The notes under the pieces were generated by a model. It searched no databases and was not told where the DNA came from. It saw only the letters and a program-made list of their open reading frames with translations. DNA of 64,000 nucleotides from Nocardioides aquaticus (GTDB taxonomy: Bacteria; Actinomycetota; Actinomycetes; Propionibacteriales; Nocardioidaceae), in the NCBI RefSeq assembly GCF_018459925.1, contig NZ_CP075371.1:4340001-4404000 (forward strand). Reading direction: 5' to 3'. Position 1 is the first letter of the stretch. Each line of letters begins with the position of its first letter. Positions 1-57,555 of the stretch are shown piece after piece. A program made the translations under genes and the position numbers.

Positions 1-1
1 G

Positions 2-1132
2 GCGTCGTCCGGCGGGTCGCTCTTCGACCTCGGTGGCGGCGACGAGCCGGCCGCCGCGCCGGCTGCGAAGGCGTCCGACGCACCCGCCGAGGTGCCGGCC
101 GACAAGGGTCTGGGCGGCGGGTCGCTGTTCGACCTCGGCGGTGACGAGCCGGCTGCGAAGGCCGAGCCCGCCGCACCGGCGGCGGCCGAGCCGGCCCCGA
201 AGCCGGCGACGAAGCCGGCCACGGACCTCGGGTCCGGCGGGTCGCTCTTCGACGTGGAGGCCGACGAGCCCGCGCCGGCAGCACCCGCCGTCGACCCGAA
301 GCCCGCCGAACAGGCGACGGCCGAGCCGGACGCGACGACGGAGCCGGCGACGCCGGCCACGAAGCCGGCCACGGACCTCGGGTCCGGCGGGTCGCTCTTC
401 GACGTGGTGGCCAACGAGCCCGCGCCGGCAGCACCCGCCGCCGACCCGAAGCCCGCCGCCGAGGCGCCCGCGACCAAGGCCCCCGAAGAGGCCCCGGCGC
501 AGGCCACCCCGGCACCGGCCACCCCGGCACCGGCCTCCCCGGCACCGGCGTCGTCCGCCCGGTCGACCGACCCGACCCGCCGCTCGATGTTCGACATCGC
601 CGCCCCGGCCGCCCCGGCCGCAGCGGCAACGGCTCCCGCCGTCGCCGAGCCCGAGGCCCAGCCCGAGGCCGAGCCCGCACCCACACCCGGGGCCGTCGCG
701 AGCGAGCCTGAGGCCGCACCGGCCCCGACCGCGGTCACCCCGGCGCCCTCGACCGAGATCCCCGAGGGCGGGTCCCTCTTCGACCTCGGGGAGCCCACTG
801 CCCCGGCACCGGCCGCCCCCGCCCCCGCGGCGGCACCGGAGCCGGTCGCCGCGACCAGCCCGGCGCCGGCGGACGAGGACACCGAGACCGTGTCGGCCGA
901 CGCCATCGTGGCGGAGGCTGCCGAGGCCGGGATCACCGAGCCCGAGGCACAGGCAGAGGCCGAGGCGCGGACCGCCGAGGCCGGGCAGGCCGCCGAGGGC
1001 CAGCCCGCGGACGAGGCCGACGCCGCGGCCGAGCCCCCCGGGGACGCGGAGCAGCCGGCCCCGTCGGGCGAGCAGCACCAGCCGCGCACCGACGCCGACA
1101 TCAGCGGGTCGAGCAGCCTCTTCGACCTCTGA
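2..1132 (+). CDS. Ala/Pro-rich repeat protein with SLFD[LVI] motifs (5' end outside window)
   Basis: The reading frame is open from the window edge to a TGA at 1130-1132, so the start lies upstream. The protein is almost entirely Ala, Pro, Glu and Asp and should be disordered and acidic. Set into it are seven short hydrophobic motifs, GGSLFDL three times, GGSLFDV twice, RSMFDI once and a final SSSLFDL that is the very C-terminus. The linkers between them are PA/PE-rich. A 50-residue unit around two of the motifs is duplicated in tandem. I do not recognise the family. Evenly spaced SLFD[LVI] motifs on a flexible chain look like repeated docking motifs for a partner protein, but that is inference. 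An alternative start at 92 (ATG) would drop the first motif; because the same repeat pattern continues upstream of it, I prefer the open 5' frame. Confidence 0.75.
   Translation, partial: ASSGGSLFDLGGGDEPAAAPAAKASDAPAEVPADKGLGGGSLFDLGGDEPAAKAEPAAPAAAEPAPKPATKPATDLGSGGSLFDVEADEPAPAAPAVDPKPAEQATAEPDATTEPATPATKPATDLGSGGSLFDVVANEPAPAAPAADPKPAAEAPATKAPEEAPAQATPAPATPAPASPAPASSARSTDPTRRSMFDIAAPAAPAAAATAPAVAEPEAQPEAEPAPTPGAVASEPEAAPAPTAVTPAPSTEIPEGGSLFDLGEPTAPAPAAPAPAAAPEPVAATSPAPADEDTETVSADAIVAEAAEAGITEPEAQAEAEARTAEAGQAAEGQPADEADAAAEPPGDAEQPAPSGEQHQPRTDADISGSSSLFDL
211..458 (+). repeat. Tandem 150-bp coding repeat
   Basis: Bases 211-308 and 361-458 are nearly identical by eye (about 3 differences in 98 bases). 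They encode the 50-residue unit containing GSGGSLFDV followed by an Ala/Pro linker. The near identity at DNA level, including third codon positions, points to recent duplication or gene conversion within the repeat protein. Confidence 0.8.
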
Positions 1133-1156
1133 GTCCCGCCCGCCGGTCGGCCCGGT

Positions 1157-1209
1157 CATGACAGCAGCGGATCACTGCCAGCAGGTGGCAGTGATCCGCT
1201 GCTGTCATG
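1157..1209. terminator. Perfect 24-bp-stem palindrome, likely bidirectional terminator
   Basis: Arms 1157-1180 and 1186-1209 are exact reverse complements (24 bp) around the 5-base loop GCAGG. It lies between the converging repeat-protein gene and the DUF559 gene, and the latter's TGA (1207-1205) is inside the right arm. There is no T-tract, as is usual for high-G+C actinobacteria. The outer arm sequence GACAGCAGCGGATCACT is shared with the palindrome at 2253-2305 on the other side of the DUF559 gene. Confidence 0.75.
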
Positions 1210-2176
1210 CGGCGAGACCGGCAGGGCAGCCCGGACCGCACGGACGGGCGTACGCCTCCACCCCGTGCTGCCGCAGGAACGCCGCCACCTTGGCCGCGGT
1301 ACGGCACGGCCGGTCCAGCACCTGCCCCCAGCCGAGACGGACCGTGGTCCGTCCGGAGGCGGCGACGTCGAGGTCACGCTCGAGGTCGAGGTCCCGCGCC
1401 AGCGGGTCGTCGTGGTGCAGCCGACCGTCCAGCTCGACGACGGCGGCGCCGAGCGTCACGTCGCGGTAGACGACGCCGGCGACCCCCGCCTCCCGCCGTT
1501 GCCGCTCGGCCCGGGGCAGGCCGTGGGCGCGCTCCACCCCGGTCAGGTAGCGGTGCTCGAGCACCGAGCAGGTCCCCTCGGCGACGTCGCGCAGCACGTC
1601 CTGCGTCCAGCGGCGTCGGGGGTACCGCGTGCGCTGGGCCAGGGCGGCGACCAGCTGCGCGGCGGTCGTGCGCCGGGAGCCCGCCGCCCGCGCCAGCACC
1701 GCGACCCGGTCCAGCTCCGCGCCGGCCGCGGCGGCCGTGTCGAGCACCGCGTCGGCGTACCGCTGCCGCGGCGGTCCGAGGTTCCACAGCACGGTCTCGT
1801 CGAGGCGGGCCACCTGGTGCACGACCACCCCGTCGAGCGGGGACGGTCGGGAGCGGCTGCGGTCGACCGCCACGTGGACGGCCGGACGACCCCGGTCGGG
1901 CCGCCCCGGGACGGGACCGTCGTACGCGCGGAGCGCGGAGCCGCCGTGCAGGGCGGCGGGCCAGGTCGCGAGCACCGCAGCCCAGGCGTGCTGGGTCCAG
2001 GAGGGCCGGCCGGTGTGGTCGACGTAGACGCCGGGCAGCAGGGTGGTCCAGGTACGGCCCCGCAGCATCCGCCGGACGTCCGCCTCGCCGAGACCGGCCT
2101 CGAGGGCCTGGCGGCGCGCCACGACGCCGTCCTGCCGCTGGAGCAGGGCGCGTACGACGGCGGGCGACTCGTCCAC
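1205..2176 (-). CDS. AbiEi-like winged-helix + DUF559 (Vsr-like) nuclease-domain protein, paralogue 1
   Basis: The 323-residue protein has two parts. Residues 1-75 resemble the AbiEi-type winged-helix domain (QDGVVARRQALEAG, then LLPGVYVDHTGRPSW). The C-terminal third looks like a DUF559/Vsr-type PD-(D/E)XK nuclease fold: CSVLEHRYL, GVVYRDVTLG, VVELDGRLHHDD, RDL and R.GW.QV. The Asp of YRD and the Glu of VELDG are the likely metal ligands. It ends with a Cys pair (CGPGC). Two paralogues are at 54511 and 56548. No AbiEii toxin gene is adjacent, so a classic toxin-antitoxin role is not supported. The gene sits between two palindromes (1157 and 2253) with identical 17-base arms, and its stop codon is inside the first. 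Domain assignment is by motif; biochemical function is unknown. It could be a solitary defence or repair nuclease or a selfish endonuclease. Confidence 0.8.
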   Translation of the reverse strand: MDESPAVVRALLQRQDGVVARRQALEAGLGEADVRRMLRGRTWTTLLPGVYVDHTGRPSWTQHAWAAVLATWPAALHGGSALRAYDGPVPGRPDRGRPAVHVAVDRSRSRPSPLDGVVVHQVARLDETVLWNLGPPRQRYADAVLDTAAAAGAELDRVAVLARAAGSRRTTAAQLVAALAQRTRYPRRRWTQDVLRDVAEGTCSVLEHRYLTGVERAHGLPRAERQRREAGVAGVVYRDVTLGAAVVELDGRLHHDDPLARDLDLERDLDVAASGRTTVRLGWGQVLDRPCRTAAKVAAFLRQHGVEAYARPCGPGCPAGLAA

Positions 2177-2252
2177 GCCGCGCAGCCTGCGCCCGGAGGT
2201 GTCCGCGGCGCCAGGCCCGTGCCACCGACCTGTGGACGACCACGCCGCCCGC

Positions 2253-2305
2253 CATGACAGCAGCGGATCACTATCACCTGGTGGCAGTGATCCGCTGCTG
2301 TCGTG
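2253..2305. repeat. Palindrome matching the one at 1157 (upstream side of DUF559 gene)
   Basis: Arms 2256-2272 (GACAGCAGCGGATCACT) and 2286-2302 are exact reverse complements of 17 bp. The centre 2275-2283 is CACC-T-GGTG. The 17-base arms are identical to those of the palindrome at 1157-1209, so the DUF559 gene lies between two copies of one element about 1.1 kb apart. It is 77 bases upstream of that gene's start and 18 bases beyond the stop of the 2323-2646 gene, so it could also terminate that operon. Confidence 0.7.
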
Positions 2306-2322
2306 TGCCGGGCAGGCGGGCC

Positions 2323-2646
2323 TCAGCCTCCGGCGGTGTCGTCCTCCTGCACCGGCACCACGACCGGACGCACGCGGGCCCAGACCACGAAGCCCACGCC
2401 CACCACGAGCAGCACGATCCCGGCGATCAGGTTGCTGTTGTAGTCGTCGGGGTCGGCGACCCCCGGCGTGCTCTCGGTGAAGAGACCGGTGACGGTGAGG
2501 ATCACCCCGTAGACGGCCAGCAGGCCGCCGATGACGTTGCGGATGTCGAAGGCGCCGGCGGTGTGCGTGCGTTCCTCGAAGGCCGCCTTCTCGGTCTCGG
2601 ACATCGACGCCTCGGCGGGCGACCCGGACTGGTGCTCGTTGCTCAT
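2323..2646 (-). CDS. Small two-TM membrane protein, likely symporter partner
   Basis: The protein has 107 residues with a polar, acidic N-terminus of about 35 residues. Two predicted membrane spans follow (VIGGLLAVYGVILTVTGLF and LIAGIVLLVVGVGFVVWA), then a short charged tail. It starts 11 bases after the stop of the sodium:solute symporter gene and is clearly in the same operon. Small membrane proteins downstream of or next to SSS-family transporters are common in actinobacteria and may act as accessory subunits. This one does not show an obvious DUF485 signature to me, so the functional link rests on position only. The 2253 palindrome follows it and may end the transcript. Confidence 0.75.
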   Translation of the reverse strand: MSNEHQSGSPAEASMSETEKAAFEERTHTAGAFDIRNVIGGLLAVYGVILTVTGLFTESTPGVADPDDYNSNLIAGIVLLVVGVGFVVWARVRPVVVPVQEDDTAGG

Positions 2647-2656
2647 GCGGTGCTCC

Positions 2657-4462
2657 TCAGAAGGCGAAGTTCAGGGCGATGACCATCACCAGGGCGATGC
2701 CGGCCAGCGGCATGGTGCGTCGGTACCACGGGTAGCCGGCCTCCTCGGCGTCGACGAGGTCCTCCTTGGGCGTCTCGGAGTAGACCAGGCCCCGGAGCTC
2801 GGCCGGGTCCTTGGGCTTGGTCACCAGCGACACGACCACGCTGAGGACGATGTCGACGACGAAGGCCGTCGCCGCGGCGACGAAGGCGGCGCCCTGGCCC
2901 CCCAGCGGGATGACCCCGAGGCTGGCCGCGCCGAACGCGTCCTCGGAGAGGAACGCGACCAGCACCGCGGACAAGGTGCCGGCGACCAGGCCGACCCAGC
3001 CGGCGGTCGGCGTCATCCGCTTCCAGAACATGCCGAGGATGAAGGTGGCGAACAGCGGGGCGTTGAAGAACCCGAACAGGGTCTGCAGGTAGTCCATGAT
3101 GTTGGTGAAGCCCGAGGCGAACACGGCCGTGCCGATCGCCACGACCGCCGCCACGACCGTGGCCCACCGGCCCACGCGCAGGTAGTAGTCGTCGGAGCGG
3201 TCCTTGACGACGTACTGCTCCCAGAGGTCGTAGGACAGCACGGTGTTGAACGCAGAGATGTTGGCGGCCATGCCGGCCATGAACGCGGCGAGCAGGCCCG
3301 CGATGGCCAGGCCCAGCAGGCCGTTGGGAAGCACGTCGCGCATCAGGTAGAGCAGCGCGTCGTTGTACTGCACCGTCCCCTCGGCCCCGCCGGCCACGGT
3401 CTCGCCGGCCTTGAGGTCGGCGATCTCGGAGACCAGGACGGCGGCGATCATGCCCGGCACGATCGTGACGAACGGGATGAACATCTTCGGGAAGGCGCCG
3501 ATGATCGGCGTCTTGCGGGCCGCGGAGATGGAGTTCGAGGCCATCGCGCGCTGGACCTCGACGAAGTTCGTCGTCCAGTAGCCGAAGGACAGCACGAAGC
3601 CGAGCCCGAAGACGATCCCGACCACCGACAGGAAGTCGTTGGAGAAGCCGGAGAGCGCGTTGCCCGGCCAGGAGTTCAGCTGCTCGGAGGCGGTCGCCGA
3701 GGCCGGGTTGCTCGCGGCGGCCTCGGTGATCCTGTCCTTGAGCCCGCCCCAGCCACCGACGCGGTGCAGGCCGATCAGGGTCAGCGGCAGCAGCGAGGCC
3801 ACGATCACGAAGAACTGCAGCACCTCGTTGTAGATCGCCGCGCTCAGCCCGCCCAGGGTGATGTAGGACAGCACGACGATCGCGGCCACGACCAGCGAGA
3901 GGTAGAGGTTCCAGCCGAGCATCGCCTGGATGATGCTGCCGAGCAGGTAGAGGTTCACCCCGGCGATCAGCAGCTGGGCCAGGGCGAAGGACAGCGCGTT
4001 GACGAGGTGGGCGCCCGTACCGAAGCGGCGGCGCATGAACTCGGGCACCGAGCGCACCTTGGAGCCGTAGTAGAACGGCATCATCACCACGCCGAGGAAC
4101 AGCATGGCCGGGATCGCGCCGATCCAGAAGTAGTGGGTCGCGGGCAGGCCGAACTCGGCCCCGGACGCCGACATCCCCATGATCTCGACGGCGCCGAGGT
4201 TGGCGGAGATGAAGGCGAGGCCGGTGACCCAGGCCGGCAACGACCGGCCGGACAGGAAGAAGTCCACCGAGTCCGAGACCTGGCGGCGGGCGAGGACGCC
4301 GATCCCGAGGACGACGAGGAAGTACAGCGCGACGATCAGGTAGTCGACGAAGCTCGCCGAGATGATCGTGGCCTGGGGGATGACGGGCAGCACCGGTGGA
4401 TTCCACACCTCGGACCGGCGGTTGCACAAGACCCCAGGGGGACCTTTGGCCCCATCCGACAC
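2657..4462 (-). CDS. Sodium:solute symporter (SSS) family transporter
   Basis: The protein is 601 residues from the GTG at 4462, with about 14 hydrophobic spans. It should import an organic solute with Na+ across the cytoplasmic membrane. Family features are the N-terminal DYLIVALYFLVVLGIGV span, the FFLSGRSLPAWVTGLAF segment after the first loop, and the GLLAAFMAGMAANISAFNTV stretch in the SSS core. The length suits the SSS family, with a C-terminal extra span ending in the cytoplasm or membrane. Substrate is not deducible; the pattern is closer to sugar/solute-type members than to PutP. The start is uncertain: residues 1-28 precede any membrane segment, there is no clear ribosome binding site, and in-frame GTG codons at 4408 and 4393 are plausible. 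It is followed at 11 bases by a small membrane protein. Confidence 0.88.
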   Translation of the reverse strand: MSDGAKGPPGVLCNRRSEVWNPPVLPVIPQATIISASFVDYLIVALYFLVVLGIGVLARRQVSDSVDFFLSGRSLPAWVTGLAFISANLGAVEIMGMSASGAEFGLPATHYFWIGAIPAMLFLGVVMMPFYYGSKVRSVPEFMRRRFGTGAHLVNALSFALAQLLIAGVNLYLLGSIIQAMLGWNLYLSLVVAAIVVLSYITLGGLSAAIYNEVLQFFVIVASLLPLTLIGLHRVGGWGGLKDRITEAAASNPASATASEQLNSWPGNALSGFSNDFLSVVGIVFGLGFVLSFGYWTTNFVEVQRAMASNSISAARKTPIIGAFPKMFIPFVTIVPGMIAAVLVSEIADLKAGETVAGGAEGTVQYNDALLYLMRDVLPNGLLGLAIAGLLAAFMAGMAANISAFNTVLSYDLWEQYVVKDRSDDYYLRVGRWATVVAAVVAIGTAVFASGFTNIMDYLQTLFGFFNAPLFATFILGMFWKRMTPTAGWVGLVAGTLSAVLVAFLSEDAFGAASLGVIPLGGQGAAFVAAATAFVVDIVLSVVVSLVTKPKDPAELRGLVYSETPKEDLVDAEEAGYPWYRRTMPLAGIALVMVIALNFAF

Positions 4463-30175: not shown

Positions 30176-30958
30176 ATGACGACCGCTGACTCGGGCCGCC
30201 CGTCACGACCGGCCGGCACCATCCTCGCGCTCGGGGGTGGCGGCTTCTCCGTGGGCGAGAGCCCGCTCCTGGACGACCTCCTGCTCGACCTCGCCCGGCC
30301 ACGCGCCGAGCGGCGCGGCCACGGCGACCGGCCGCGGGTGGCGTTCGTCGGGACGGCGAGCGGTGACGCCGACGGCTACGTCGAGAAGTTCGAGGCCGCC
30401 TTCGCCGACCGCGCGGAGACGACCGTCGTGCCGCTGTTCTGGCGTGACGGCTCCGACCTCGCCGCGACGCTGCTGGACCAGGACGCGGTGTTCGTCGGCG
30501 GTGGCAGCACGCTGAACCTGCTGGCGCTCTGGCGCCTGCACGGGCTGGACGAGGCGATGGCTGCGGCGCTGGCCGACGGCGTCGTGCTGTCCGGGATCAG
30601 CGCAGGGATGAACTGCTGGTTCGACGCGTCGGTCACCGACTCGCACGGCCCGCTGAGCGCGCTCGACGACGGGCTGGGGTTCCTGCCCGGGTCGGCGTGC
30701 CCGCACTACGACGGCGAGGCCGACCGGCGTCCGGCGTACCTCGACATGGTCGGCTCCGGGGCCCTCCCCAGCGGCTTCGCCGCCGAGGACGGGGTCGGCC
30801 TGCTGTTCCGCGACGGCGCCCTCGTCGAGGCGGTCAGCGAGCGCCCCGACGGCCGCGCGTTCCGGGTGCACCTGTCCGGCGGCGCGCTGGACGTCGACGA
30901 CGCCGCCGACCTCGCCGACGTGGCCGAGAGCCCGCTGGACGTGCGGTTCCTGGGCTGA
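30176..30958 (+). CDS. Peptidase E (S51 family) / cyanophycinase-like protein
   Basis: The protein has 260 residues. ILALGGGGFSV opens the fold. DAVFVGGGSTLNLLALWRLH and VLSGISAGMNCWFDASVTDS carry the substrate loop and the nucleophile Ser of the G-x-S-A-G motif, as in peptidase E, which cleaves Asp-X dipeptides. LLFRDGALVEAVSE is the usual C-terminal region. No signal peptide is seen, so it is cytosolic. Peptidase E is favoured over cyanophycinase because no cyanophycin genes are near. It is a single gene followed by a perfect 46-bp palindrome. Confidence 0.9.
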   Translation: MTTADSGRPSRPAGTILALGGGGFSVGESPLLDDLLLDLARPRAERRGHGDRPRVAFVGTASGDADGYVEKFEAAFADRAETTVVPLFWRDGSDLAATLLDQDAVFVGGGSTLNLLALWRLHGLDEAMAAALADGVVLSGISAGMNCWFDASVTDSHGPLSALDDGLGFLPGSACPHYDGEADRRPAYLDMVGSGALPSGFAAEDGVGLLFRDGALVEAVSERPDGRAFRVHLSGGALDVDDAADLADVAESPLDVRFLG

Positions 30959-30968
30959 GCCGACCCGG

Positions 30969-31014
30969 ACGTCGTACGGCGCGCACCGCAGCTGCGGTGC
31001 GCGCCGTACGACGT
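30969..31014. terminator. Perfect 46-bp palindrome with no loop (bidirectional terminator candidate)
   Basis: Bases 30969-30991 are the exact reverse complement of 30992-31014: ACGTCGTACGGCGCGCACCG then CAG on the left arm. It begins 11 bases after the peptidase E stop and ends 31 bases before the convergent desaturase stop. That position fits a shared terminator. A zero-spacer dyad this long could also be a binding site or cruciform. Confidence 0.7.
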
Positions 31015-54354: not shown

Positions 54355-54398
54355 CCGAAGATCGTAGGTGCGCGGACCGGGTGACCGCGCTCCCCGGT

Positions 54399-54443
54399 CG
54401 ACGTGTCGTTTCCGTCCACCTGGTGCATGCAACCGACCCATCG
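54399..54443. repeat. 45-bp degenerate palindrome with ACCTGGTGC core, between divergent genes
   Basis: The core CCACCTGGTGCATGCA is conserved with the element at 43890, and the full 45 bases align without gaps. The arms pair only weakly (GTCGTT with AACCGAC, plus outer GGTCGA at 54396 with TCGACC at 54441). It lies between the divergent malQ and DUF559 genes, so it cannot be an ordinary terminator. It is about 66 bases upstream of the DUF559 start. Confidence 0.6.
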
Positions 54444-54510
54444 ACCAGCTCCTCCACAGGTGTGGCCAGGACACCGGCCGGCGGGGGCGGCCCCCGACGA
54501 GGCTGGAGCC

Positions 54511-55467
54511 ATGGCTGCACCCACCCCGGTCGACCGAGGACCCGGCTCGGACGACCTCCGCGTCCTGGTCCGGGCCCAGGACGGGGTCGTCTCACGCCCC
54601 CAGCTGCTGTCTGCAGGACTGCGGGACCACGACATCGCCCGGATGCTGCGCCGGCGCGAGCTGGCGCCGGTCCACCTGGGCGTCTACGTCACGCACACCG
54701 GGCCGTTGACGTGGCAGCAGCGGGCCTGGGCCGCCGTGCTGGCCCACCACCCCGCCTGGCTGACCCGGGAGTCCGCCCTGCCCGACCCTCCACAGGACGG
54801 GGTGATCCACGTGGCCGTCGCTCCAGGGCGGAAGGTGCGTCCGGTGCCTGGTGTCGTGGCCCATCGCACGGCCCGTGTGCACCACCGTGTCGCCCCGATG
54901 TCCACCCTGCCGAGGCTGCGGCTGGAGGAGGCCGTGGTCGAGGTGGCTGCAGCGGCACGGGACCCGTACGACGCCTTCGCCGCTTTCGCCCGCCTCTGCC
55001 ACACCAGGCGAAGTCACCCGCAGGCGATCGCCGAGGCGCTCCGGAGGCGACGCGGTGTCCCGGCCGGCTCCTTGCTGCTGGAGATGCTCGCGGACCTGGC
55101 CGAGGGTGCCTGCTCGGTGCTCGAGCGGGAGTACCTCGTCCGGGTCGAGCGTGCGCACGGGCTGCCGGCGCCGGCCCGGCAGCTCCGGGTCCGTACCGCC
55201 GGCGGCGTCGTGTACCGGGACGCCGACCACCTCGCGTACGGCGTGGTCGTGGAGCTCGACGGGAGGCTCTTCCACGACTCCCCCCACCGCCGGGCCGAGG
55301 ACCTCGACCGGGACCTCGACACCGTCGCCGAGGCTGGGGGCGTGACGCTGCGGATCGGATGGCGCCAGGTGACCCGCGATGCCTGCCGCACCGCGCACCG
55401 GATCGGTCGGGTCCTGCAGCGGCACGGGTGGGAGGGAACGGTGGGCCGGTGCCCGGGATGCCCCTGA
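54511..55467 (+). CDS. AbiEi-like winged-helix + DUF559 nuclease-domain protein, paralogue 2
   Basis: The protein has 318 residues from the ATG at 54511; the upstream ATG at 54403 is inside the palindrome and I reject it. The N-terminal domain is VRAQDGVVSRPQLLSAGLRD followed by LAPVHLGVYVTHTGPLTWQQ. The C-terminal nuclease-like part is CSVLEREYLVRVERAHGLPA, GVVYRDADHLAYG, VVVELDGRLFHDSPH and LRIGWRQV. It ends with RCPGCP. Motif residues match paralogues 1 and 3. It lies between the palindromes at 54399 and 55485 and stops 17 bases before the second. Function is unknown. Confidence 0.82.
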   Translation: MAAPTPVDRGPGSDDLRVLVRAQDGVVSRPQLLSAGLRDHDIARMLRRRELAPVHLGVYVTHTGPLTWQQRAWAAVLAHHPAWLTRESALPDPPQDGVIHVAVAPGRKVRPVPGVVAHRTARVHHRVAPMSTLPRLRLEEAVVEVAAAARDPYDAFAAFARLCHTRRSHPQAIAEALRRRRGVPAGSLLLEMLADLAEGACSVLEREYLVRVERAHGLPAPARQLRVRTAGGVVYRDADHLAYGVVVELDGRLFHDSPHRRAEDLDRDLDTVAEAGGVTLRIGWRQVTRDACRTAHRIGRVLQRHGWEGTVGRCPGCP

Positions 55468-55484: not shown

Positions 55485-55533
55485 GTCGGTGGGTGGATCG
55501 TCTCTACCTGGTGCGTGCGATCTACCCGTCGAC
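55485..55533. terminator. Imperfect palindrome with ACCTGGTGC core, downstream of DUF559 paralogue 2
   Basis: GGGTGGATCG (55491-55500) pairs with CGATCTACCC (55518-55527) with one mismatch, and outer GTCG (55485) pairs with CGAC (55530). The core TACCTGGTGCGTGC aligns with those at 43890 and 54399 over 45 bases. It lies between converging genes (stops at 55467 and 55538), so it could be a bidirectional terminator. Confidence 0.6.
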
Positions 55534-56547: not shown

Positions 56548-57516
56548 ATGACGTGCATGACCGGGATGGACGAGGAGGGGCTCGCCCATCTGCTCCGCTG
56601 GGTGCAGGACGGGGTCGTGTCCCGCCGCCAGCTGTTCGACCTGGGCGCCGAGCCCCATGACCTGCGGCGGTGGCTCAGGCGCGGGCGCTTCACGCCGGTC
56701 CACCCCGGGGTCTACGTCGAGCACAACGGCCCGACCACCTGGGACCAGCGCGCCTGGGCGGCGGTCCTGCTCCACGAGCCGTGCGCCCTGACGCGGGAGT
56801 CGGCCCTGCCCCGACCACCGGACCGGGCGCCGGTCCAGGTCGCCATCGGGCTCCGCCGCAGCGTGCGCGCCGTGCCCGGGGTGGTGGCCCACCGCACCGC
56901 ACACTGGGAGGACCGCGTCCGGCCGGGGTCGTGCCCTCCTCGCCTGCGCATCGAGGAGGCAGCGGTCGAGGCCGCCCTCCACGAACCGGACCCGGGCCGT
57001 GCGTACCGGCTGCTGGCCGAGGCGACGTGGTCCCGGCAGACCGATGCGAGGACGATCGCGGCCACGCTGGGCCGGCGCCGTGGCGGGGCCAACCACGCGC
57101 TGCTGGCGGGCATGCTCGACGACCTCGCGCTCGGAGCGTGCTCGGTGCTGGAGCGCGAGTACCTGCACCGCGTCGAGCGGGCGCACGGTCTCCCCTGCGC
57201 CGAGCGGCAGGTGGGGGCGACGGCCGTGGGACGCGTGCAGCGTGACGTCGAGTACCGGCGGTTCGCCGTCGTCGTGGAGCTGGACGGGCGGGCGTTCCAC
57301 GAGTCGCCGCAGGCGTTCGACCAGGACCTCGGCCGCGACCTGGCCACAGCGGCGCTCCGCCACGGCTCGGACCGCGTCACGCTCCGGGTGGGGTGGGGCC
57401 AGGTGCTGCGCGACGCCTGCAGCACGGCGGGTCACGTCGGCGACGTCCTGCGGTCCAGGGGCTGGGAGGGGACCCTGCGGCGCTGCCCGCAGTGCCCGCG
57501 GCCCGTCGGGTCGTGA
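56548..57516 (+). CDS. AbiEi-like winged-helix + DUF559 nuclease-domain protein, paralogue 3
   Basis: The protein has 322 residues; ATGs at 56557 and 56566 are alternative starts. The N-terminal domain is LRWVQDGVVSRRQLFDLG then FTPVHPGVYVEHNGPTTWDQ. The C-terminal part is CSVLEREYLHRVERAHGLPC, RDVEYRRFAVVVELDGRAFH and TLRVGWGQVLRDAC. It ends RRCPQCPRP. Its TGA stop (57514-57516) is inside the left arm of the perfect palindrome at 57510-57548, as in paralogue 1. No matching long palindrome is visible upstream. Confidence 0.82.
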   Translation: MTCMTGMDEEGLAHLLRWVQDGVVSRRQLFDLGAEPHDLRRWLRRGRFTPVHPGVYVEHNGPTTWDQRAWAAVLLHEPCALTRESALPRPPDRAPVQVAIGLRRSVRAVPGVVAHRTAHWEDRVRPGSCPPRLRIEEAAVEAALHEPDPGRAYRLLAEATWSRQTDARTIAATLGRRRGGANHALLAGMLDDLALGACSVLEREYLHRVERAHGLPCAERQVGATAVGRVQRDVEYRRFAVVVELDGRAFHESPQAFDQDLGRDLATAALRHGSDRVTLRVGWGQVLRDACSTAGHVGDVLRSRGWEGTLRRCPQCPRPVGS

Positions 57517-57548
57517 TCTGGTGCCACCTACTGGCACCAGATCACGAC
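57510..57548. terminator. Perfect 17-bp-stem palindrome after DUF559 paralogue 3
   Basis: GTCGTGATCTGGTGCCA (57510-57526) pairs exactly with 57532-57548 around loop CCTAC. It lies between converging genes and contains the stop codon of the DUF559 gene. Bidirectional termination is likely. The inner GGTGCCACCTACTGGCACC echoes the core of the other elements but does not contain ACCTGGTGC. Confidence 0.75.
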
Positions 57549-57555
57549 CTGACGT

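What the first reader, a model, noticed from the sequence alone, without database searches (positions are those of the whole stretch)
1157..2305. DUF559 nuclease gene lies between two palindromes with identical arms
Palindromes at 1157-1209 (24-bp perfect stem) and 2253-2305 (17-bp perfect stem) share the identical 17-base arm GACAGCAGCGGATCACT. The only gene between them encodes an AbiEi-type winged helix plus DUF559/Vsr-like domain, and its stop codon is inside the first. This is the layout of a self-contained unit bounded by its own recognition sites, such as a selfish endonuclease or a small mobile element. Nuclease and target site are inference; the repeat identity is seen.
Basis: partly seen in the sequence, partly recalled or inferred. 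Interest (0 to 1): 0.72.

Follow-up and report, generated by a model that had tools for sequence, protein, structure and literature searches.

The report
Nuclease gene bracketed by dispersed palindromes
A gene for a predicted DNA-cutting protein sits between two copies of a 47-letter palindrome that is also scattered around the same bacterial genome, and many of its relatives in actinobacteria are bracketed by matching pairs of their own palindromes, which points to an undescribed repeat-and-nuclease partnership.

Summary
The palindrome is a dispersed repeat: 14 copies in this genome, 10 in Nocardioides sp. AX2bis (10 of 10 at orthologous sites, two of them beside the 86%-identical orthologue). 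Two of four G000-only copies have clean empty sites in AX2bis.

Of 93 related genes, 32 have a strong palindrome upstream, 46 at the 3' end, 20 both; control genes give 14/220, 25/229 and 0/216. The two palindromes of one gene usually match each other but differ between species, also at shared loci. Palindrome similarity tracks protein similarity, most for the winged helix.

The protein is predicted (pLDDT 94) to join an AbiEi-type DNA-binding half to an EDxHD/Vsr-type nuclease domain. No Y1 (RAYT-type) transposase was found in the genome.

Best reading: a REPtron-like partnership built from proteins unrelated to RAYT. Binding, cutting and spreading are inferred. Against: the palindromes beside two genes tested (G118, G086) are not dispersed, and 15 of 93 genes lack a detectable palindrome.

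The parts
1205..2176 (-). AbiEi-EDxHD nuclease gene, 323 aa (GTG start at 2176, stop 1205-1207)
1157..1209 (.). 3' flanking palindrome, family 1; overlaps the stop codon
   Evidence: 24-bp perfect stem; orthologous copy in AX2bis with 0 of 47 differences
2253..2305 (.). 5' flanking palindrome, family 1; 76 bp lie between it and the start codon
   Evidence: orthologous copy in AX2bis with 2 of 47 differences
56566..57513 (+). second homologue of the nuclease gene (316 aa, 44% identical; stop 57514-57516)
   Evidence: tblastn; AbiEi_4 Pfam E 9e-8, above its cut-off
57509..57549 (.). palindrome of a second family at the stop codon of that homologue
   Evidence: 18-bp perfect stem; related copies elsewhere in the genome
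54511..55464 (+). third homologue (46% identical); flanking palindromes, if any, decayed
   Evidence: tblastn; no palindrome scoring 11 or more beside it

Best explanation
This is a REPtron-like system: a resident gene bracketed by two copies of a palindrome that also lives as solitary copies around the genome. The protein's AbiEi half (winged helix plus second domain) most likely binds the 47-bp palindrome as a symmetric oligomer, and its EDxHD/Vsr-type C-terminal domain cuts or nicks DNA at or near it. Repair or replication of the cut DNA copies palindromes into new sites, mostly just downstream of genes, while the gene itself stays put and co-evolves with its palindrome. The 5' palindrome probably also serves as the gene's own operator and the 3' one as a transcription barrier. 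SHOWN: anatomy, dispersal, presence/absence at single sites, matched flanking pairs, protein-palindrome co-variation, sequence conservation of solitary copies. PREDICTED: the fold. INFERRED: binding, cutting, and that this protein causes the spread.
For: Dispersal: 14 family-1 copies in G000, 10 in AX2bis, 10 of 10 orthologous; 0 in the other 57 genomes. Two of four G000-only copies have clean empty sites in AX2bis. Bracket, score 13 or more: 5' 32/93 vs 14/220 control genes, 3' 46/93 vs 25/229, both 20/93 vs 0/216 (Fisher p 1e-9, 5e-13, 8e-12). Matched pairs: 26 genes with both at score 11 or more; same-gene similarity median 31, 22 of 26 above 17, the 95th percentile between genomes (median 8, n 646). 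Beyond the genus: of 25 further loci (20 from other genera) 11 have both, 8 of these above the between-gene 95th percentile of 24, one at 21, two unlike. Concerted change at shared loci: within-gene median 27 (n 17), across species at the same locus 9.5 (n 159). Co-variation: Mantel r 0.356, largest of 999 permutations 0.115; strongest for the winged helix (r 0.323, weight 0.225), weakest for the nuclease domain (0.263, 0.078). Other families dispersed: 11 of 98 genomes, up to 8 places including the flanking ones; G105 and G117. Fold. E207, D239, H255, D264 invariant in 85 of 85. AbiEi binds 23-N3-23-bp inverted repeats in its own promoter (PMC3985639, passages). No Y1_Tnp in the genome; the same search rings in 5 of 14 control genomes.
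Against: Dispersal is not universal: the palindromes beside the genes of G118 and G086 have no second copy within 3 mismatches of the pattern, G013 has one more. 35 of 93 genes have no palindrome at score 13, 15 none at 11; 4 of 26 same-gene pairs are no more alike than pairs from different genomes. No target-site duplication was seen. All 10 AX2bis copies are shared with G000 and orthologous copies keep private variants, so little movement or homogenisation has happened since the two split. Loss rather than gain at the empty sites is not excluded (no outgroup used). Co-variation may partly reflect physical linkage and shared descent. Nothing here shows that the protein binds or cuts DNA.
Confidence: 0.57

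Rival explanations
1. Operator scatter: the protein is an autoregulated AbiEi-type DNA-binding protein, and the dispersed palindromes are its regulatory or chromosome-organising binding sites kept by selection; the nuclease domain serves defence or is restrained by binding. Palindromes are not mobilised by it.
For: AbiEi precedent of 23-bp inverted-repeat operators. Solitary copies are conserved in sequence, not just pairing: 16 differences in 470 nt (4 central, 12 one-sided, 0 compensatory) against dS 0.337 in the gene. Similarity tracks the winged helix best.
Against: A regulon would put sites at promoters; 10 of 14 copies lie 6-30 bp after a stop codon and 10 of 14 between genes called as convergent. 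It does not explain the palindrome at the gene's own stop codon nor presence/absence of whole 47-bp sites.
Confidence: 0.22
2. Ordinary bidirectional transcription terminators: strong hairpins at the ends of convergent genes, the nuclease gene being one customer among many.
For: The two palindromes fold at -47 to -55 kcal/mol on either strand. Most copies lie at 3' ends.
Against: No U-tract terminator found in 1-4000. Control genes with strong palindromes at both ends: 0/216. Near-identical sequence at 14 sites, matched 5' and 3' pairs, and no compensatory change among 12 arm differences are not expected of independent terminators.
Confidence: 0.1
3. Composite mobile unit: palindrome-gene-palindrome transposes as one, and solitary palindromes are remnants (MITE-like).
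For: The bracket has steady geometry: 5' centre median -97.5 bp (n 42), 3' centre median +21.5 bp from the stop (n 62). Several homologues per genome in different places. 22 of 90 loci share no neighbour with any other locus examined.
Against: 60 locus pairs (29 loci) share neighbours on both sides and there the gene stays while the palindromes change. No target duplications seen. Of the four G000 homologues examined only one has a strong palindrome on both sides.
Confidence: 0.11

Closest known systems
REPtrons (REP palindromes with RAYT/TnpA-REP genes)
   Same: Gene flanked by palindromes that are also dispersed around the genome; gene usually single and not known to move; repeat families specific to the gene (PMC3733652 and PMC8266576, passages).
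   Different: RAYTs are HUH/Y1 enzymes acting on single strands; this protein is predicted as AbiEi plus EDxHD/Vsr and no Y1_Tnp is in the genome. Palindromes are near-perfect with about 23-bp arms; GTAG-type tags were not looked for.
AbiE type IV toxin-antitoxin, antitoxin AbiEi
   Different: Carries a nuclease domain; neighbours in the window are a 107-aa protein, an SSF symporter and a repeat-rich ORF, none matching a toxin family.
EDxHD homing endonucleases (I-Bth0305I) and Vsr
   Different: Free-standing gene between chromosomal genes; flanked by intact palindromes rather than interrupting one; AbiEi-type DNA-binding half.

Membership tests
REPtron / RAYT | gene flanked by palindromes that are also dispersed in the genome | tested here: met
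   but for some relatives (G118, G086) no dispersed copy was found
REPtron / RAYT | protein is a Y1 tyrosine (HUH) transposase | tested here: not met
   No Y1_Tnp in G000; predicted fold is AbiEi plus EDxHD/Vsr
REPtron / RAYT | single-stranded hairpin recognised and cleaved | not testable with these tools
   needs biochemistry
AbiE type IV toxin-antitoxin | AbiEi fold with winged helix | tested here: met
AbiE type IV toxin-antitoxin | AbiEii (DUF1814) toxin in the same operon | tested here: not met
   Of the three neighbouring ORFs scanned, one is an SSF symporter and two match no Pfam family; the rest of the genome was not searched for AbiEii
EDxHD homing endonuclease | EDxHD catalytic fold | tested here: met
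   (predicted model)
EDxHD homing endonuclease | E-D-H-D residues conserved | tested here: inconclusive
   E207, D239, H255, D264 invariant in 85 of 85; their equivalence to the motif is my reading, not a superposition
EDxHD homing endonuclease | gene lies in, or copies itself into, its cleaved target site | tested here: inconclusive
   no gene-less version of the locus was seen; at 29 of 90 loci the gene is at a site shared with another species
DUF559 (Pfam PF04480) | matches the profile | tested here: not met
   No match listed for the window protein at E up to 10; 5 of 85 relatives match at E up to 0.1, best 0.0032
intrinsic terminator | GC hairpin followed by U-tract | tested here: not met
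   none found in 1-4000; hairpin present, tail absent

The most novel reading that the evidence does not exclude
A class of palindrome-spreading systems widespread in actinobacteria, independent of HUH transposases, in which an AbiEi-homing-endonuclease fusion recognises a rapidly changing 45-50-bp palindrome, seeds it at gene ends by cut-and-repair, and enforces its conservation there: an invention of REP-type repeat biology convergent with RAYT.
Probability: 0.4. Interest if true: 0.92.

Novelty: new variant of a known kind. Interest (0 to 1): 0.85.

Why it matters
How REP palindromes spread is called poorly understood in the literature seen here (PMC8266576, abstract), and the dedicated enzyme described there is one type, RAYT. 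An unrelated predicted nuclease with cognate, co-varying palindromes gives an independent test case. It would also suggest a role for a large protein family (2199 proteins at E <= 0.001 among the 8000 candidates scored), whose listed names are 'AbiEi family antitoxin domain-containing', 'very-short-patch-repair endonuclease' or hypothetical. Its natural protein-palindrome pairs are ready-made for decoding DNA recognition by AbiEi-type winged helices.

Tried and rejected
Considered and set aside: a composite transposon moving as a unit (weakened, not excluded); conventional RAYT-mobilised REPs (no Y1_Tnp); Rfam RNAs (four matches, microRNA models far below their gathering scores); plain terminators; classical AbiE toxin-antitoxin (no toxin-like neighbour). 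Looking for target-site duplications in the four G000-only copies led nowhere: L001 and L022 are clean empties, L014 is filled by another local repeat, L006 aligns poorly. The PDB sequence search with the alignment found no relative. NCBIfam gave nothing useful. I saw passages of PMC3733652, PMC3943268, PMC3985639 and PMC8266576; PMC3239194 is not held.

Limits of the counts: homologues were taken from the upper part of the capped listing, not at random, most of them full-length. L051 was dropped as a duplicate of the window gene; L225, L226, L228, L229 and L232 as duplicates in the class-level set. tblastn rows under 180 residues were dropped. 85 of the 93 genes had a usable open frame for the alignment. 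Upstream counts use -350 to +30 from the start, downstream -100 to +250 from the gene end, the same for controls. Control regions were 20 fixed 20-kb stretches; at least one (L182) contains a homologue (L076) and was left in, which works against my reading. Control gene ends come from a simple ORF caller, the family's from tblastn. Related loci are not independent, so the Fisher p-values are too small. The 15th core match (288908) was assigned to family 2 by eye. The genome-contig scan may leave out records of this genome or its near kin.

Full report
What is in the window. Two palindromes, 1157-1209 and 2253-2305, carry identical 17-base arms and enclose one gene, 1205-2176 on the minus strand, whose stop codon lies in the first palindrome. 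The arm occurs four times in the window; no shuffle has it more than once. Aligned on their axis, the copies read GACAGCAGCGGATCACTGCCACC-W-GGTGGCAGTGATCCGCTGCTGTC with few exceptions, about 23 bp on each side of one central base.

The palindrome is a dispersed repeat. The genome (G000, 4.58 Mb) holds 14 copies; a core search gives 15 places, one of which I assign by eye to a second family. None of the other 57 genomes of that search, 36 of them of the same genus, has a match within 3 mismatches. An exact scan of genome contigs finds it only in Nocardioides sp. AX2bis (5 places; near kin of the window may be left out there). AX2bis (G119) has 10 copies within 3 mismatches; all 10 lie at sites orthologous to G000 copies, including both beside the 86%-identical orthologue of the gene. 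Of the four G000 copies with no AX2bis partner, two (L001, L022) have clean empty sites there, one (L014) is replaced by another local repeat and one (L006) aligns poorly. Ten of 14 copies lie 6-30 bp after a stop codon and ten of 14 between genes called as convergent by a simple ORF caller.

Solitary copies are conserved in sequence, not only in pairing. In the 10 orthologous pairs there are 16 differences in 470 nt: 4 at the central base, 12 on one arm only, none compensatory, while the nuclease gene has dS 0.337 and dN 0.084. Several private variants are shared by orthologues (for example L016/L098 and L003/L099), so copies persist by descent rather than by continuing homogenisation. This fits a bound sequence better than a bare hairpin; it also says that little movement has happened since the two species split.

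The bracket is a property of the gene family. Ninety-three homologues (3 in the window, AX2bis, 29 loci, 60) were scanned. A palindrome of score 13 or more lies upstream in 32, at the 3' end in 46, at both in 20; 35 have none at 13 and 15 none at 11. Genes called in 400 kb of Nocardioides DNA give 14/220, 25/229 and 0/216 in windows of the same size (Fisher p 1e-9, 5e-13, 8e-12, too small because loci are related). Geometry is steady: upstream centre median -97.5 bp from the start (n 42), downstream centre median +21.5 bp from the stop (n 62). In the 26 genes with both at score 11 or more, the two palindromes of one gene are alike (median similarity 31; 22 of 26 above 17) and unlike those of other genomes (median 8, 95th percentile 17); four pairs (L062, L135, L141, L143) do not stand out. 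Among 25 further loci from a class-wide search (20 outside the genus), 16 have an upstream and 17 a downstream palindrome at 11 or more, 11 both; of these 8 exceed the between-gene 95th percentile of 24, L233 has 21, L227 and L230 are unlike; 3 loci have none.

The gene stays, the palindromes change together, where this can be seen. Of 90 loci, 68 share a neighbour-like ORF with another on at least one side and 22 with none; 60 pairs, 29 loci, share neighbours on both sides. In those groups the pair around one gene is alike (median 27, n 17; 71% at 20 or more) but differs between species at the same locus (median 9.5, n 159 comparisons; 20% at 20 or more). At the window's own neighbourhood, L118 and L124 share the upstream neighbour and keep the gene with a different palindrome. 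Palindrome similarity follows protein identity (Mantel r 0.356; largest of 999 permutations 0.115; 78 genes), most for the winged helix (r 0.323, weight 0.225), less for the rest of the AbiEi half (0.303, 0.156), least for the nuclease domain (0.263, 0.078). The single column most associated is R35; R39 and E31 are also in the top ten, and all three lie in helix 31-39, the likely recognition helix (exploratory). Linkage and shared descent can contribute to this.

Dispersal was tested for four more palindromes, with a mixed result. A palindrome shared by five homologues (core CGGCCCGACCTAGCGG) occurs in 11 of 98 genomes, 1 to 8 places each, the flanking ones included, reversed control 0. TGCGGTGGCTGTGGTCC, chosen from G105 and related genes, gives 8 and 12 hits in G105 and G117 (4 and 3 of them in the flanking pair), 0-2 in the other 15 genomes, and 11 scattered reversed-control hits over all 17. 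In a distant genus (g45) TGATCATCRRSGATC, taken from flanking palindromes there, gives 4 to 94 hits in each of ten genomes; five genomes of other genera give 0, 0, 1, 2 and 19; reversed control 0. A full palindrome gives two hits, and of ten fetched places five are full palindromes by eye. Against: the palindromes of G118 and G086 are single within 3 mismatches, G013 has two places, G016 one. The window's genome also holds a second family, beside the homologue 56566-57513.

How it most likely works. The AbiEi half binds the palindrome, at the gene's own promoter side and at solitary copies; the nuclease half acts on DNA there; copies arise through repair of the cut. The gene is resident. The nearest analogy is the REPtron, where a resident gene flanked by REPs is thought to mobilise dispersed REPs (PMC3733652, PMC8266576, passages). 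It is not a member: no Y1_Tnp was found in the genome (5 of 14 control genomes ring) and the predicted fold is unrelated. The rival that deserves most weight is a set of conserved operators or architectural sites without mobilisation.

Verdict on the finding. Observation confirmed; interpretation partly supported: recognition sites likely, movement as a unit not shown. No account of this pairing turned up in the ten paper searches made. Novelty is set at a new variant of a known kind because the architecture is REPtron-like; the proteins are not.

Noticed in passing
window 30969-31014: Perfect 23-bp palindrome without loop (ACGTCGTACGGCGCGCACCGCAG...) between ORFs ending at 30958 (+) and 31045 (-); not beside a homologue of the nuclease.
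   Followed up: no
window 54397-54445 and 55491-55527: By eye, imperfect palindromes with an ACCTGGT centre lie either side of the third homologue (54511-55464); the script found nothing of score 11 or more there. They may be decayed flanking palindromes.
   Followed up: no
L014 (about 1553-1610) and L219: Another local repeat (GGTGGTCGAGGAGCGAGCGACAGCGAGCGTCTCGAGACC-like) sits beside the palindrome in G000 and in several copies at the palindrome-free AX2bis site.
   Followed up: no
L062, L116, L121, L135: A different palindrome type, GGATCCCCGG...CCGGGGATCC-like, lies at ends of several homologues, sometimes on one side only or beside the usual type.
   Followed up: no
window 92-1132: Ala/Pro-rich plus-strand ORF with repeated GGSLFDL/GSLFDV motifs; no Pfam family.
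   Followed up: no
G000:C1:4480560-4481516 (L104): A 71%-identical paralogue with an in-frame TAG whose 3' palindrome (TGCCGCGGATCACTGCG...) shares GCGGATCACTGC with the window's palindrome.
   Followed up: partly
window 1205-2176, residues C291, C313, C317: Three cysteines invariant in 85 of 85 relatives near the C-terminus, possibly a metal site.
   Followed up: no
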